From the NCBI GenBank assembly GCA_026786335.1, contig JAJAYG010000445.1, forward strand, positions 1 through 10,201: DNA of 10,201 nt, given 5' to 3'. The notes beneath the pieces are model-generated. The model was not told where the DNA came from and searched no databases. It was given only the letters and a program-made list of their open reading frames with translations. The position numbers were made by a program, and so were the translations under genes. Origin of the DNA: Chitinophagales bacterium. Its GTDB lineage: Bacteria > Bacteroidota > Bacteroidia > Chitinophagales > UBA10324. Within the stretch, counting starts at the first letter, position 1. Every line of letters begins with the position of its first letter. Below are positions 1,635 through 10,041 of this stretch, one piece after another.

Positions 1635-2198
1635 ATGAAGAAAACCAAGAATCAACTAATGATTGCTGATGACAAAATCATCAACAAGATTTTTTTGATC
1701 AGGGGAAAGAAGGTGATGCTTGATCGGGATTTGGCGGAGTTGTATGGCGTAGAAACTAAAGTATTGAAGCAAGCTGTTCGACGAAACCTAGATCGCTTTC
1801 CTGAAGATTTTATGTTTGAGATGACAATAAAAGAACTGAATAATTGGAGGTCACAATTTGTGACCTCCAATTCTACAAGAATTGGTCTAAGGTATCCTCC
1901 CTTCTGTTTTTCGGAACAAGGTGTAGCAATGTTGTCTTGTGTGCTCAATAGTGAGCAAGCAATTGGAGTAAGCATACAAATTATGCGCGTGTTCACCCGT
2001 ATGCGAGAGTACTTGCTCACACATGGAGATATTTTATTGAAGCTTGAAAAAATAGAGAAGGAACTTTTGAAACAAGACAGACGAGGAAGTAAACATGAAG
2101 AAGAAATAGGAATGTTGTTTGAAGCGTTGAAAGAGTTAATGAATCCACCGCAACCACCAAGAACGCAAATTGGATTTAAGTTGAGTAACAAGGGTTGA
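1635..2198 (+). CDS. ORF6N domain-containing DNA-binding protein
   Basis: The product has 187 residues and carries an ORF6N domain over about residues 10-110. Matching features are the RGKKVMLDRDLAELYGVET segment, KQAVRRNLDRFPEDFMF, NWRSQFVTSN (70-79) and FSEQGVAMLSCVLNS. ORF6N is a phage-type domain related to the KilA-N/Bro-N group and is thought to bind DNA. A charged, probably coiled-coil segment follows (about 137-170), with the usual basic Pro-rich tail. A TTG at 1629 could also start the frame, but the ATG at 1635 is the better choice. The gene begins 8 bases after the acyltransferase stop, so it is probably read from the same transcript although it is unrelated in function. Its own coding sequence contains a 31-bp palindrome (1842-1872) that recurs three times downstream, which makes self-binding or a palindromic-element origin worth considering. 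The cellular role is unknown. Confidence 0.88.
   Translation: MKKTKNQLMIADDKIINKIFLIRGKKVMLDRDLAELYGVETKVLKQAVRRNLDRFPEDFMFEMTIKELNNWRSQFVTSNSTRIGLRYPPFCFSEQGVAMLSCVLNSEQAIGVSIQIMRVFTRMREYLLTHGDILLKLEKIEKELLKQDRRGSKHEEEIGMLFEALKELMNPPQPPRTQIGFKLSNKG
1842..1872 (+). repeat. perfect 31-bp palindrome inside the ORF6N gene (copy 1)
   Basis: The left arm AATTGGAGGTCACAA (1842-1856) is the exact reverse complement of 1858-1872, around a single central T. It is in frame with the gene and encodes N70-W-R-S-Q-F-V-T-S-N79, a conserved part of the ORF6N domain. Confidence 0.95.
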
Positions 2199-3574: not shown

Positions 3575-4453
3575 ATGCAGAAACCAAATTTTCTTTTAGT
3601 AGGAGCCGGAAAAAGTGCAACCCGATCGCTGTACAATTATATGATACAGCATCACGACATCTTTATGCCGAAGATGAAGGAGCCGCAGTTTTTTGTCGCT
3701 AAAGAAGTACATGGCAGAATTCAGAAATGGCTCGATGATGAGAAAAAATATTTCCATCTCTTTGATCATTCATCAGGCAAAAAAGCAATTGGCGAAGCGA
3801 GTGTGATGTATTTATTTTTTTATGAAGAAGCAATTCGCAACATCAAAAAATATCTGGGAACGGATGTGAAGATCATGATGATTCTTCGCAACCCGGTTGA
3901 TCGTGCTTATTCAGCTTACAACTTTGTTCATGTAAATAATCCCGATGAAAAATATTCTTTTGAAGAAGCCTTGGAGAAAGAAGACGAGCGCTGGAAAAAT
4001 AATGCGACACTCTTTATGCAATACAAACGCATGGGATTGTATGCCGATGCAGTAAAGGCATATAAAGAAAATTTCCCCAACCTTCATATCATGTGGTATG
4101 ATGAATTCAGAAAAGATCCTGAAACGGTTTTAATAGGTGTTCTGGAATTTTTGGGAGTAGATAAAAATGTTCCCATTGATTATTCACGCCAATGGAATAA
4201 GGGAGGAAAGAAGTGGAAGAATCCGGTTTTGCGGTGGCTTTTTATGAGCGATAATATTTTAAAGAAGACCTACAAAGTTTTCGCACCTCAAAGAAAAGGA
4301 GTTCGCACCAATGAATTCTTTACCAAAAATTTTATGGAGAAAACCGAACCCATGAATCCTGAAACACGAAAATTGCTGATTGAATATTTCAAGAAAGATG
4401 TAAATCAATTGCAGACCATTACAGGAAGAGATTTAAGTTCCTGGCTACAATAA
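3575..4453 (+). CDS. PAPS-dependent sulfotransferase (intact, paralog 1)
   Basis: The product is a 292-residue cytosolic enzyme of the sulfotransferase superfamily, which moves sulfate from PAPS to a hydroxyl or amino group, here probably on a glycan precursor. The 5'-phosphosulfate loop is G-A-G-K13-S-A-T-R-S-L19. K-E36-P-Q-F-F supplies a glutamate at the place of the catalytic base of heparan-type sulfotransferases. The 3'-phosphate motif is L-R105-N-P-V-D-R-A-Y-S113. The C-terminus, GRDLSSWLQ, is shared with the three other paralogs here. The phosphosulfate loop departs from the usual KSGTTSL: Ala15 replaces Gly and Arg17 replaces Thr, which may alter cofactor binding. The gene starts 81 bases after the SGNH stop and no clear promoter lies between, so cotranscription is likely. 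Confidence 0.9.
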   Translation: MQKPNFLLVGAGKSATRSLYNYMIQHHDIFMPKMKEPQFFVAKEVHGRIQKWLDDEKKYFHLFDHSSGKKAIGEASVMYLFFYEEAIRNIKKYLGTDVKIMMILRNPVDRAYSAYNFVHVNNPDEKYSFEEALEKEDERWKNNATLFMQYKRMGLYADAVKAYKENFPNLHIMWYDEFRKDPETVLIGVLEFLGVDKNVPIDYSRQWNKGGKKWKNPVLRWLFMSDNILKKTYKVFAPQRKGVRTNEFFTKNFMEKTEPMNPETRKLLIEYFKKDVNQLQTITGRDLSSWLQ

Positions 4454-4490: not shown

Positions 4491-5918
4491 GTGGAAAAAG
4501 AAACAAAAGGTGAACACACTTCAGAAATTGTTAAGGGCGGCATATCAGCATTTGCCATGCGCCTCATTGGTATGGCACTCAACTGGGTATTTGCTGTTAT
4601 GCTTGCCCGAACAACCGGAGCTGCAGGAACAGGAGTTTACAACCTCACTCAATCATTGCTGAATTTCTGTAACAGCATTTCAAAACTTGGTTCCGATACA
4701 TTAATGACCCGCTTTGGAGCGCAATATTATGTGAAACGGCAATGGAGTTTGATAAAAGATTTGTACAACAAATCCATGATGGTTTCAATACCTCTCAGCA
4801 TTTTTATTTCGGCCATCATTTATTTTTTCGCGAATGAAATTGCCGGCGACATTTTTAAAAAACCAGACCTTGCTCCATATTTTCAAATCGCATCATTAGC
4901 GCTTTTACCATTAACAGTTTTTCAAATAAGCACGGGTGGCATACGGGGATTGAAGAAAATTAAAGAGTATGCTTTTCTGCATAATGTCAGCAACTTTATT
5001 TTCGGAATACTCATTCTCGGCAGTATTCTTCTTTTTACCTCACGCCGTGATTTGTACGTGCCTGTAATAGTTTACACAATATTCATTACCCTCACCGCTA
5101 TTCTTAGCTTTTACTGGTACCTTAAATTCTCACGCTACTTTTCTACAAAACCAGAAACCGGCATCAACTTCAATGAAAAATTCTGGATTGGCATTTCACT
5201 TTTTGTTGCCGCCTTTGCATCATTGATTCGTGGCTATGCCGATACTTTTATTCTTGGGCGCTATGCACCTATTGAAGATGTGGGAGTATACCGTAATGCT
5301 TTTAAAGTAGCCACTATCACCCGCATTACACTGGTGGCATTGCTTATTCCCGCAGCACCAAAATTTGCCGAATTATTTTCACTTGGTAAAATGGATGAGT
5401 TAAAAAAGTCGGCACAATATGTTACTAAAATAATTTTCTGGTGTTCTGCTCCAATTCTTGCGATGGTAATTATTGGTGCACCCTTCATTATGGGTATCTT
5501 TGGTGAGGACTTTGTAAAAGGAAGTTTGGCACTCATCATTCTTGCTATTGGTCAGTTCATTAATGCAGCAACGGGTCCCGTCAACAGCCTTCTAATAATG
5601 ACCGGAAAGCAAAAGCTGAATCGCAATATCATGGTGGGTGCAACTATTATCGCTGTAGCGCTTGACCTGGTTTTAATTCCCAAGTACGGAGCTGTAGGTG
5701 CTGCTTGCGTAAATACACTGGGGGTAATTGTAATGAACATGATACCATTTTTCCTTATCAAAAAGTATTATGGTTTCTATACACTCGACTTCACAAACAT
5801 TTTTAATGTTAATCCAAAAACTTTTTTGAAAGAAGTAAAAAAAGCACTTAGGCCTGAGAAGAAAAAAGGCGAAGGCGATTCAACAGCTACTGAAGATCAA
5901 ATTGGAGGAGTTGAGTAA
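4491..5918 (+). CDS. polysaccharide flippase (Wzx/MurJ-like, MOP superfamily)
   Basis: This is a polytopic inner-membrane protein of 475 residues, the usual size for oligosaccharide flippases. Its N-terminal SEIVKGGISAFAMRLIGMALN segment is typical of this group, and hydrophobic helices run to about residue 430, followed by a charged Lys/Glu-rich cytoplasmic tail. Such proteins move undecaprenyl-linked sugar units to the periplasmic face, which fits the sulfotransferase and glycosyltransferase neighbours. The start is GTG at 4491. The only nearby ATG (4557) would cut into the first helix and lose the conserved SEIVKGG, so GTG is preferred. The exact substrate cannot be told. A TAnnTTTG-like string (TAAATTTG, 4484-4491) overlaps the start codon. 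Confidence 0.9.
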   Translation: MEKETKGEHTSEIVKGGISAFAMRLIGMALNWVFAVMLARTTGAAGTGVYNLTQSLLNFCNSISKLGSDTLMTRFGAQYYVKRQWSLIKDLYNKSMMVSIPLSIFISAIIYFFANEIAGDIFKKPDLAPYFQIASLALLPLTVFQISTGGIRGLKKIKEYAFLHNVSNFIFGILILGSILLFTSRRDLYVPVIVYTIFITLTAILSFYWYLKFSRYFSTKPETGINFNEKFWIGISLFVAAFASLIRGYADTFILGRYAPIEDVGVYRNAFKVATITRITLVALLIPAAPKFAELFSLGKMDELKKSAQYVTKIIFWCSAPILAMVIIGAPFIMGIFGEDFVKGSLALIILAIGQFINAATGPVNSLLIMTGKQKLNRNIMVGATIIAVALDLVLIPKYGAVGAACVNTLGVIVMNMIPFFLIKKYYGFYTLDFTNIFNVNPKTFLKEVKKALRPEKKKGEGDSTATEDQIGGVE

Positions 5919-5975: not shown

Positions 5976-6851
5976 ATGCTTCCAAACTTCCTCTGTGTAG
6001 GCGCACAAAAATCAGGTACTACCACGCTGTATGAAATTCTCAAACAGCATCCTGATATTTTTCTTCCCCAGAAAATAAAAGAGACCAAGTTTTTTGTATT
6101 TGAAGAAAAATTTTCGAAAGGAAAAGCATGGTACGAGAAAGAATTTTTTAGTGAATGGTAAAACCAGATAGCAATTGGGGAGGTTGATCCTGCAATGATG
6201 TTTGAAGAAAAATCAGCTCAGCGTATTTATGATACTTTAGGAAAGGATGTGAAACTCATTTTTATTTTCCGCAATCCGGTAAGTCGCGCCTATTCGCATT
6301 TTCTCATGAGCCGGCGCAAAGGATTTGAAACATTAAGCTTTGATGATGCCATTGAAAAGGAACCCGAAAGACTAAATACCGACCCCGAAAAAAAATTCAA
6401 TTACAGTTATTTTACCAGAGGATATTATGCGCTTCAGGTGGAAAGGTTTTTGAAATTGTTTTCGAGAGAAAACTTTTTGTTTTTGGTTATGGAAGATGAT
6501 TTTGTAAAGAACCGCAAAGTCACATTTGAACGAATTCAGGATTTTTTGGGTGTAAAAAAAGCAGCGCTGAATTTAGGAGTTAAGAGCAATGAAGCTGCGG
6601 CACCCAAGAGTAAAATGGTTCACGACATAACGAGGAAGAAAAACCCATTGAAGAAAATATTTGGAAAACTGATTCCGAAATCACTTAGAAAATCAGTTCA
6701 GAATTTCATTTCAAAAAATAATGAAGCAACCATTCAAAACCCAAAGCTCGACCCGAAGAGAGAAAAAGAATTGATTGAAAAATATTTCATTGGCGATATT
6801 CACCGCCTTGAGAAAATGATTGATCGCGATTTGAGTTCATGGTATAATTAA
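5976..6851 (+). pseudogene. PAPS sulfotransferase interrupted by one in-frame TAA (paralog 2)
   Basis: Frame and length match an intact enzyme (291 sense positions, against 292 residues in paralog 1), apart from a TAA at codon 62 (6159-6161). Before the stop, 61 codons hold the phosphosulfate loop G-A-Q-K12-S-G-T-T-T-L18 and the probable catalytic Glu36 in K-E-T-K-F-F. After it the same frame continues through A-I-G-E to the 3'-phosphate motif F-R99-N-P-V-S-R-A-Y-S107 and the end, RDLSSWYN. No insertion or deletion is needed. The rear part could restart at ATG 6195, where GGGGAGG lies 11 bases upstream, but that G-rich string is also the codons for G-E. The codon before the stop fits a Trp-Lys-Asn reading, so an AAA-to-TAA change is the simplest history. 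Readthrough or a sequencing error remain possible. Confidence 0.8.
6159..6161 (+). other. in-frame TAA within sulfotransferase paralog 2
   Basis: This stop lies six codons before the G of the conserved A-I-G-E. It separates a 61-residue front part (5976-6161) from a 218-residue rear part (6195-6851) in the same frame. Paralog 4 has an AAA lysine codon at this column. Confidence 0.9.
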
Positions 6852-6852
6852 A

Positions 6853-7776
6853 ATGATTGATAAAAATTTATTCCCCAACCTCTTCATCGTAGGTGCAGCC
6901 AAAGGCGGCACCACCACCTTGCATTATGCACTCGATCAGCATCCGCAGGTGTATATGAGTCAAAAGAAAGAACCCGGCTATTTTGTGTGGGCTGAAGAGG
7001 ATTTGCAATTCATCAATAACGGAAAACTAATTACACAGCCGCGTTTTCTTGTCAATCACCTCAATGATTATCTAAATCTTTTTAAAGATGGATAAGAAAA
7101 AATGATTCGTGGCGAATCATCTACCACCTATCTTTTCTTCTATCAAAAATGCATTGCAAACATCAAACGCATTCATCCCAATCCTGAGCAGGTAAAGATT
7201 GTAATTGCGCTGCGCAATCCTGTTGACCGTGCGTATTCGCAATACATGCACAAACTCCGAGATGGCGCCGAGTCGCTTTCTTTTGAAGAGGCATTGGATA
7301 AAGAGCAATGGAGAAAAGAAAACAACTGGCACTTTGATTATCAATATGTGCAGCGCGGATTTTATTATGAGCAGGTGAAAGCATTTCTCGAAAATTTTTC
7401 TTCCACCAAAATTTATCTGAGCGAAGATTTGCGAAATGATGCCGCAGGTGTGGTGAATTCATTGGAAGAGTTTTTAGGAATAGAAAAACTGCCACTTGAT
7501 TTTGGCGGAGAATTGAACGCCAGCGGCGAAGGGAAAATCGAATCGCTTAATAAATTTTTGAAGAAAGAAAATCCGCTAAAGAAATTTGTAGGAAGTTTAT
7601 TTCCCAAAGCATTGAGAAGAAGAATGCGACTGAAAGTGCAGAGCACTGTTTACAAATACAATTTGGAGAAGAAGGAAATGAACCCCGAAACCCGTGAGCG
7701 GTTGAAGAAAATATTTCATGATGATGTGCAGAAGTTACAGGAATTGATTGGGAGAGATTTAAGTTCGTGGCTATGA
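6853..7776 (+). pseudogene. PAPS sulfotransferase interrupted by one in-frame TAA (paralog 3)
   Basis: The ATG follows the stop of paralog 2 by a single base, so the two form one transcription unit. The frame holds 307 sense or stop positions before the TGA terminator, a normal length. The front part carries G-A-A-K17-G-G-T-T-T-L23, with Gly18 in place of the usual Ser, and Glu40 in K-E-P-G-Y-F. A TAA at codon 81 (7093-7095) follows L-F-K-D-G. The same frame resumes with E-K-M-I-R-G-E-S-S-T, the 3'-phosphate motif L-R121-N-P-V-D-R-A-Y-S129 and the shared end, GRDLSSWL. Restart is possible at ATG 7102, six bases beyond the stop, which would give a 224-residue rear part lacking the phosphosulfate loop. 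A single AAA-to-TAA change explains the break. Confidence 0.8.
7093..7095 (+). other. in-frame TAA within sulfotransferase paralog 3
   Basis: This stop lies six codons before the G of the conserved G-E-S, the same column as the stop in paralog 2. It divides the gene into 6853-7095 (80 residues) and 7102-7776 (224 residues). Confidence 0.9.
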
Positions 7777-8948: not shown

Positions 8949-8956
8949 TAAATATA
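8949..8956 (-). promoter_or_regulatory. candidate -7 element of the ATPase gene
   Basis: On the minus strand this reads TATATTTA, one base from TAnnTTTG, 16 bases before the ATG. The expected -33 region falls inside the palindrome at 8960-8981, where no TTG is present. Confidence 0.35.
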
Positions 8957-8959
8957 ATG

Positions 8960-8981
8960 TTTCTCGTTTTAAAACGAGAAA
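8960..8981. promoter_or_regulatory. perfect 22-bp palindrome, probable operator of the ATPase gene
   Basis: TTTCTCGTTTT is followed directly by its reverse complement. The element covers the -33 region expected for the ATPase promoter, as a repressor site would. A second copy of the CTCGTTT/AAACGAG half-sites lies 32 bp away, centre to centre. Confidence 0.65.
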
Positions 8982-8993
8982 TAGTATAATATA

Positions 8994-9011
8994 TCTCGTT
9001 TTGAAACGAGA
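8994..9011. promoter_or_regulatory. second CTCGTTT palindrome, probable operator
   Basis: CTCGTTT and AAACGAG, with T and A outside, are inverted around a central TG, and the half-sites are the same as in the palindrome at 8960-8981. The 32-bp centre spacing, about three turns of B-DNA, puts both on the same face of the helix. The site lies between the two divergent genes, nearer the ATPase. Confidence 0.6.
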
Positions 9012-9063
9012 AAACTGAAAGCAGATCAATTGCATGTTGGTTTTGTTGTGCAAACTCAATGGT

Positions 9064-9090: not shown

Positions 9091-10041
9091 ATGGCAAATA
9101 AACTCCCTAACTTTTTTGTAGTAGGCGCAGCCAAGAGCGGCACTACTTCATTGTATGAATATTTAAAGTTGCATCCGCAGGTGTACATGGCTCCCATCAA
9201 AGAAACCCATCACTTCAGCACCGATATTGACAATAGCAAATTTCGCCCAAACTATGCGCGATCACTCAATAAAGATTTGAGTAAATTTTTAGAGAGTGAT
9301 ATGGAGGAAGGAATCTTTCATGCTTTCGTAAAAGACCCGAACGATTATGTGCAGCTTTTCAAAAATGTAAAAGAAGAAAATGCTGTAGGCGAAATCACAA
9401 ACTCTTATTTGTATTCGCATGAAGCAGCTAAATATATCATCACCAAATTCCCCAATGCAAAAGTGATGATGATGTTGCGCAATCCTGTTGATCGTGCTTT
9501 TAGTCACTACCTCATGGATTTAAGAATCGGGTATGAGACGGAAGATTTTATGACTGCCTTGAAGAAAGATATGAACCGCAACCCTAAAGGGTGGGGCATC
9601 AGCAACTTGTACATCGAGATCGGGATGTATTATGATCAAGTGAAACGTTACATCGAAATTTTTCCTGAATCACAACGGCGCATTTTCATCTTCGACGATT
9701 TTATAAAAAATCCTGAGGCGATGATGAAAGAGATTTTTCGTTTCCTGGGAGTTGATGAAGAAACAACTATTGATTTCGGAAAGAAGTACAATCCGAGTTT
9801 CATTCCCAAAAATAAAATCATTGGCAAGTTGAATACTATGAAGCGCGTTAAGGATTGGCTGAAAGGTGTGTTGCCGAAATCGGTAAAATCAAAGTTTAAA
9901 AAAACATTTTACACCGATAAAGATTTGCCGAAGATTAAACCCGAAGAGCGAAAATTCCTGAATGAAATTTTTAGAGAGGATGTGAGCAAGCTTTCGCAAT
10001 TGCTGAATCGTGATCTTTCAAATTGGTTAGAAAAAAAATAG
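9091..10041 (+). CDS. PAPS-dependent sulfotransferase (intact, paralog 4)
   Basis: The product has 316 residues and all the parts of the family in order: phosphosulfate loop G-A-A-K15-S-G-T-T-S-L21 (a textbook form), Glu38 in K-E-T-H-H-F as the probable catalytic base, A-V-G-E-I near 108, 3'-phosphate motif L-R130-N-P-V-D-R-A-F-S138, and the shared C-terminus RDLSNWLEKK. Relative to paralog 1 it has extra residues between the Glu and the G-E motif, as does paralog 3, so these two may be closer relatives or share an acceptor type. It has its own candidate promoter and sits beyond the opposite-strand ATPase gene. At the column where paralogs 2 and 3 have TAA it has lysine (AAA). The acceptor is probably the glycan made by this locus, but this is inferred from neighbours only. 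Confidence 0.92.
   Translation: MANKLPNFFVVGAAKSGTTSLYEYLKLHPQVYMAPIKETHHFSTDIDNSKFRPNYARSLNKDLSKFLESDMEEGIFHAFVKDPNDYVQLFKNVKEENAVGEITNSYLYSHEAAKYIITKFPNAKVMMMLRNPVDRAFSHYLMDLRIGYETEDFMTALKKDMNRNPKGWGISNLYIEIGMYYDQVKRYIEIFPESQRRIFIFDDFIKNPEAMMKEIFRFLGVDEETTIDFGKKYNPSFIPKNKIIGKLNTMKRVKDWLKGVLPKSVKSKFKKTFYTDKDLPKIKPEERKFLNEIFREDVSKLSQLLNRDLSNWLEKK

What the first reader, a model, noticed from the sequence alone, without database searches (positions are those of the whole stretch)
6159..7095. Two adjacent sulfotransferase genes carry TAA at the same homologous column
Paralogs 2 and 3 are otherwise full-length, in frame and have intact cofactor motifs. Each has exactly one TAA, and in an ungapped local alignment both fall six codons before the G of the conserved G-E motif, where paralog 4 has AAA (Lys). 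The bases around the two stops differ (TGG TAA AAC against GGA TAA GAA), so a simple copied patch is not obvious. Options are coincidental decay at a mutable AAA codon, a shared systematic base error, stop readthrough, or genuine division into a front part with the phosphosulfate loop and a rear part with the 3'-phosphate motif.
Basis: partly seen in the sequence, partly recalled or inferred. Interest (0 to 1): 0.8.

Follow-up and report, generated by a model that had tools for sequence, protein, structure and literature searches.

The report
Chance stop codons in sulfotransferase genes
Two neighbouring sulfotransferase genes in a fragmentary environmental genome each carry one stop codon at the same position, but relatives carry intact copies and the same genome has stray stops elsewhere, even in a core gene, so this looks like chance breakage or base errors rather than a new device.

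Summary
P2 (5976-6851) and P3 (6853-7776) each contain one in-frame TAA (6159, 7093), and alignments put both in one column, a variable loop just before the conserved G-E. No shared stop was found: 7 same-family orthologs of each gene are open, and a full-length protein 95% identical to the P2 rear exists. Apart from the stops, 0 of 86 and 0 of 99 otherwise invariant positions are changed, so there is no sign of old decay. The host assembly (G000, 564 contigs, 73% complete) has other stray in-frame stops in 389 kb sampled, including one in nusA (single match), which is open in 13 of 13 matching relatives. The same scan gave 7 such stops in G000 and 0 and 2 in two control genomes. Best reading: independent chance nonsense, either wrong consensus bases (slightly preferred) or very recent loss of both genes. 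Two random one-step stops share a column with probability about 0.005, a noticeable but post hoc coincidence. Readthrough, a functional split and recoding are weakly supported and not excluded. Raw reads would decide.

The parts
3575..4453 (+). P1, intact sulfotransferase paralog
   Evidence: PF00685 2.7e-14
4491..5918 (+). polysaccharide flippase (Polysacc_synt)
   Evidence: PF01943 4.6e-20; same neighbour order in L009 and L014 (flippase named there by eye)
5976..6161 (+). P2 front part with phosphosulfate-binding loop (motif recalled), up to the in-frame TAA
   Evidence: 61 aa, PF13469 9.2e-7
6159..6161 (+). in-frame TAA of P2
   Evidence: read from sequence; absent from 7 same-family orthologs
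6162..6851 (+). P2 remainder in the same frame (first ATG at 6195)
   Evidence: PF00685 3.3e-10 for 6195-6848
6853..7095 (+). P3 front part up to the in-frame TAA
   Evidence: 80 aa, PF13469 26.9 bits, just under its cut-off of 27
7093..7095 (+). in-frame TAA of P3
   Evidence: read from sequence; absent from 7 same-family orthologs
7096..7776 (+). P3 remainder in the same frame (ATG at 7102)
   Evidence: PF00685 3.2e-10 for 7102-7773
9091..10041 (+). P4, intact sulfotransferase paralog
   Evidence: PF13469 1.6e-18, PF00685 2e-18

Best explanation
The two TAA codons are two independent single-base nonsense differences in otherwise intact sulfotransferase genes of a draft genome close to Chitinophagales assemblies. 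They most likely are wrong or minority-strain bases in a fragmentary assembly that carries a scatter of such stops. They fall in one column by chance, in a variable loop. Shown: the stops, the column, open relatives, no decay, extra stops elsewhere including nusA. Inferred: that the bases are not those of the living majority genome; no reads could be seen.
For: nusA of the same assembly (single match, contig C307) has an in-frame TAA inside NusA_N, yet is open in 13 of 13 matching relatives (of 15 searched), with E in 9 and D in 3 of the 12 that cover the column. That a cell cannot live with nusA broken there is recalled, not tested. Same-criterion scan: 7 stop-interrupted coding frames in 389 kb of G000, 0 in 377 kb of G007, 2 in 400 kb of G003. 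A simpler scan flagged 19 against 5 in G007, adjacent-gene pairs included. P2 and P3 are otherwise unchanged at invariant positions: 0 of 86 and 0 of 99, as in 22 of 33 and 26 of 39 relatives. nusA of G000 departs at 4 of 150 such positions against 0-2 in eight same-family relatives. A full-length protein 95% identical to the P2 rear is intact. Window composition is native to the assembly.
Against: No reads were available. Two nonsense errors within about 1.8 kb is more clustering than a scattered rate predicts, while 7 other genes of the window are clean. ABC_tran and Glycos_transf_2 matches in the assembly (31 and 16) show no internal stop, and in 54 genes compared by homology the only interior stops were those of P2 and P3. 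TAA is over-represented: 6 of 7 in the stricter scan, 47% expected from equal single changes. The shared column has a chance of about 0.005. The cluster of the P3 rear has 3 member sequences; if the others come from strains with the same truncation, the P3 stop would be real.
Confidence: 0.45

Rival explanations
1. Real, very recent nonsense mutations: this strain has lost both neighbouring surface-polysaccharide sulfotransferases, and the column is coincidence.
For: Two lesions in linked neighbours fit relaxed selection on one pathway. Other lesion clusters in the assembly (two stops and an apparent frameshift in C447, stop and apparent frameshift in C17) lie in genes without core-gene domains (no family, and DUF5122). 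The AAA_14/DUF4143 gene between P3 and P4 is absent from L009, where the two genes adjoin, so the locus has been disturbed.
Against: No accompanying decay in either gene; nusA with the same kind of lesion argues for errors.
Confidence: 0.38
2. Low-level stop readthrough keeps both proteins made in small amounts, as proposed for in-frame stops in other bacteria.
For: Both genes look selected until recently. In-frame stops in conserved bacterial genes are reported as widespread (PMC7918605: outline with abstract, and passages). Only one release-factor (PCRF) match was found in the assembly, so release factor 1 was not seen, though the assembly is 73% complete. nusA would then be tolerated.
Against: No stop in 7 orthologs of each gene; 20 tRNAs found, none with a stop anticodon (150 of 168 candidates were scored); the release factor found reads like release factor 2 (named by recall), which also reads TAA.
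Confidence: 0.08
3. Genuine division into a front and a rear polypeptide that assemble, with restart after the stop.
For: The column lies in a loop between helix 50-58 and strand 66-70 of the modelled P2 relative P0122. In P3 an ATG follows three codons after the stop behind an A-rich stretch. Rear-length database proteins P0002, P0125 and P0160 start near the same place.
Against: In P2 the next start codon is 12 codons on and loses G68, E69, D71, P72 and A73, invariant in 30 of 30 relatives. A search with the two front parts found 15 proteins; all 15 were read and none ends where the window's parts end. P0190 is one residue longer, its last residue lying at the column, on a 537-base contig. 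The three rear-length proteins sit on contigs of 835 and 1129 bases or on none listed, so may be cut.
Confidence: 0.05
4. TAA is read as an amino acid in this lineage.
For: 6 of 7 stops of the stricter scan are TAA, 14 of 19 of the looser, nusA among them; 47% expected by equal single changes. Release factor 1 was not seen.
Against: TAG and TGA interruptions are flagged too (1 TAG; 3 TAG and 2 TGA); TAA ends ordinary genes of the window; residues replaced differ; no suppressor tRNA among 20.
Confidence: 0.02

Closest known systems
Sulfotransferases of Pfam PF00685/PF13469; nearest solved chain by profile of P2 relatives 3rnl_A, then heparan sulfate 3-O- and N-sulfotransferases
   Same: Domain, N-terminal phosphosulfate-binding loop (motif recalled), R-N-P-x-x-R-A-Y-S segment, G-E loop in the same place in 3rnl
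   Different: P2 and P3 are interrupted by a stop between the two cofactor-binding parts
In-frame stops in otherwise selected bacterial genes (PMC7918605; outline with abstract, and passages)
   Same: Single stop, rest of gene conserved
   Different: That study includes complete genomes (section heading); here a fragmentary assembly, and a core gene is hit too
Flippase-sulfotransferase-glycosyltransferase loci of Chitinophagales relatives
   Same: Order flippase-P2-P3-P4-glycosyltransferase in L009 and L014 (flippase and glycosyltransferase named by eye)
   Different: Window has ORF6N and AAA_14/DUF4143 genes within the locus; the latter is absent between P3 and P4 of L009 and L014

Membership tests
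Sulfotransferase (PF00685/PF13469) | Family profile match | tested here: met
   Pieces of P2 and P3 score 25-40 bits; best scores of P1 and P4 are 54 and 68 bits
Sulfotransferase (PF00685/PF13469) | Both cofactor-binding parts on one open frame | tested here: not met
   One TAA between them in P2 and in P3
Sulfotransferase (PF00685/PF13469) | Sulfate transfer activity | not testable with these tools
   needs an assay
Functional stop readthrough | Stop conserved among relatives | tested here: not met
   0 of 7 same-family orthologs of each gene carry it
Functional stop readthrough | Suppressor tRNA or similar decoder | tested here: inconclusive
   None among 20 tRNAs, assembly 73% complete; one release-factor match only
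Old pseudogene | Accumulated changes at conserved positions | tested here: not met
   0 of 86 and 0 of 99
Assembly or base error | Reads disagree with consensus | not testable with these tools
   no reads held
Assembly or base error | Implausible lesions elsewhere in the same assembly | tested here: met
   nusA with in-frame TAA; essentiality recalled

The most novel reading that the evidence does not exclude
The organism tolerates in-frame stops genome-wide by leaky termination, mostly at TAA, so that nusA and both sulfotransferases are made at reduced level across their stops, and the sulfotransferase pair is tuned by stops at one tolerant loop position.
Probability: 0.04. Interest if true: 0.8.

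Novelty: already known. Interest (0 to 1): 0.2.

Why it matters
If the stops are errors, it is a caution for reading single-genome oddities in fragmentary assemblies: check a core gene first. If real, this strain has lost two probable surface-sulfation enzymes at once. Only if readthrough were proven would it say something new about termination.

Tried and rejected
Copied patch between P2 and P3: local identity is at the pair's median. Foreign or misbinned contig: GC 0.379 against median 0.374; 4-mer correlation with the rest 0.975, 47th of 70 from the lowest. Shared stop in the protein database: two rear-part searches and one front-part search gave no clear case; one search listed 120 of 175 hits. 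A 45,599-base contig length is shared by pieces of both genes (P0172, P0188, P0194); I read these as frameshifts, not the same stop. Genome-contig scan: 5 loci, all 5 on contigs whose lengths match contigs of G001, G007, G008, G009 and G011 listed. Rfam: no match in the window at gathering score. One search was flawed (a script read an alignment row as the window and included 15 contigs that read all N) and is superseded; one search ended in an error. Paper searches: one search found nothing; one search listed PMC7918605.

Rows dropped: of 84 sampled G000 contigs 15 read N and were left out; 69 plus the window make 70. Adjacent-gene pairs among the 19 flagged stops were judged by eye only. Only 8 read-through proteins were given to Pfam; the stop lies inside the best-matched domain stretch in 2 of 8 (nusA, rmuC). 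In one search, 33 of the 38 P2-like rows P0122-P0159 and 39 of the 40 P3-like rows P0003-P0042 were used (length limits; two P2 rows, P0144 and P0150, also removed as near-duplicates). In one search events needed 40 codons on either side; frameshift calls were 11 in G000, 10 in G007 (at least 4 beside runs of N) and 2 in G003. In one search the controls had 13 genes with no stop and 12 with one at a gene edge.

Full report
What is there. The window is a whole 10,201-base contig (C445) of G000, a draft genome of 2.9 Mb in 564 contigs, 72.85% complete. The relatives named are four Chitinophagales and one Bacteroidetes assembly. The contig holds part of a likely surface-polysaccharide locus: MBOAT, an SGNH/GDSL-like protein (below its Pfam cut-off), four sulfotransferases (P1-P4) and a flippase, and at its end the start of what looks like a glycosyltransferase (by eye against L009). 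P2 and P3 each have one in-frame TAA.

Relatives. P3 orthologs in 7 of 15 other same-family genomes (58-75% identity; the one in G009 lies in two pieces) and P2 orthologs in the same 7 (55-72%) have no stop. Outside G000 I saw no internal stop in the listed matches of either search; the list was cut. Among the best database rows the column holds K 24, N 8, G 2, S 1, A 1, Q 1 in P2-like proteins (37 of 40 rows examined) and K 12, R 11, E 6, I 4, A 3, C 3, T 1, S 1 in P3-like proteins (41 of 45). It is a variable position. In the model of the P2 relative P0122 (mean pLDDT 85) residue 62, the column, lies in the loop between helix 50-58 and strand 66-70. P0122, full-length, is 95% identical to the P2 rear. 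The closest intact P3 relative listed is 84% identical to the P3 rear.

State of the genes. Leaving each sequence out in turn, the window's P2 departs at 0 of 86 positions invariant in 33 relatives, and P3 at 0 of 99 in 39; most relatives also show zero. So there is no old decay.

Is the assembly peculiar? In 70 contigs (388,841 bases, window included) a codon-usage scan flagged 19 stops with coding sequence on both sides (14 TAA, 3 TAG, 2 TGA; P2 among them, P3 not), against 5 in 377,023 bases of G007; some are adjacent genes. A stricter path model gave 7 read-through stops in G000 (6 TAA, 1 TAG), 0 in G007 and 2 in G003 (400,000 bases), and 11, 10 and 2 frameshifts; P2 and P3 are not among its 7. 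Of 8 read-through proteins given to Pfam, two have the stop inside the best-matched domain: nusA (NusA_N 6-128, stop at residue 53) and rmuC (RmuC 11-207, stop at 167). nusA is a single match in G000 and open in 13 of 13 matching relatives of 15 searched; of the 12 that cover the column 9 have E and 3 D. rmuC is open in the 2 relatives matched, with L at the column. nusA of G000 also departs at 4 of 150 otherwise invariant positions, against 0 to 2 in eight same-family relatives and 3, 9, 12 and 23 in four more distant ones, as errors or faster drift would give. Against a very high error rate: no stop in 31 ABC_tran and 16 Glycos_transf_2 matches, and in 54 genes compared with G003 and G007 the only interior stops were P2 and P3, with no change of frame; four further flags lie at gene edges.

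Chance. Single changes give a stop in 4.8% of cases, TAA being 47% of those. Two random stops in P2 and P3 share a column with probability 0.0045 to 0.0059. That is a post hoc figure for one oddity picked from a scan. The excess of TAA (6 of 7) is a mild point for TAA-specific readings.

Mechanism. I favour wrong or minority bases in a fragmentary assembly (0.45) over real recent loss of both genes (0.38). Together, chance nonsense takes 0.83. Readthrough (0.08) has literature precedent (PMC7918605, outline with abstract and passages) but no conserved stop, and no suppressor tRNA among 20 tRNAs. One release factor was found, read by recall as release factor 2; release factor 1 was not seen in this incomplete assembly, which leaves a little room for leaky TAA. 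A functional split (0.05) would suit P3, whose next ATG is three codons on, but not P2, whose rear would start after five invariant residues. None of the 15 front-part proteins found ends where the window's front parts end. On checking I raised TAA recoding from 0.01 to 0.02 because of the TAA excess and the unseen release factor 1.

Verdict.

Noticed in passing
G000 contig C307 (L142, L194): nusA (single match) carries an in-frame TAA inside its N-terminal domain; open in all 13 matching relatives.
   Followed up: yes
L101 (C447), L088 (C17): Two stops plus an apparent frameshift in one gene of C447, and stop plus apparent frameshift in one gene of C17: clustered lesions in the same assembly.
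   Followed up: partly
window 1839-1872, 2202-2235, 2247-2280, 2309-2342: Four copies (62-100% alike) of a 34-base palindrome-like repeat, the first inside the ORF6N gene's reading frame and three just downstream.
   Followed up: no
window 8953-8981 and 8985-9013: Tandem pair of palindromic 29-base repeats upstream of the AAA_14/DUF4143 gene, which lies between P3 and P4 on the other strand and is absent there in L009.
   Followed up: no
proteins P0172, P0188, P0194: Pieces of P2-like and P3-like genes on a contig of 45,599 bases, apparently frameshifted, one close to the same loop of P2.
   Followed up: partly
proteins P0002, P0125, P0160: Rear-length sulfotransferase proteins starting near the same loop; cut contigs or further broken genes could explain them.
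   Followed up: no
G000 (L231): Only one PCRF release-factor match in the assembly, release factor 2-like; release factor 1 not seen.
   Followed up: partly
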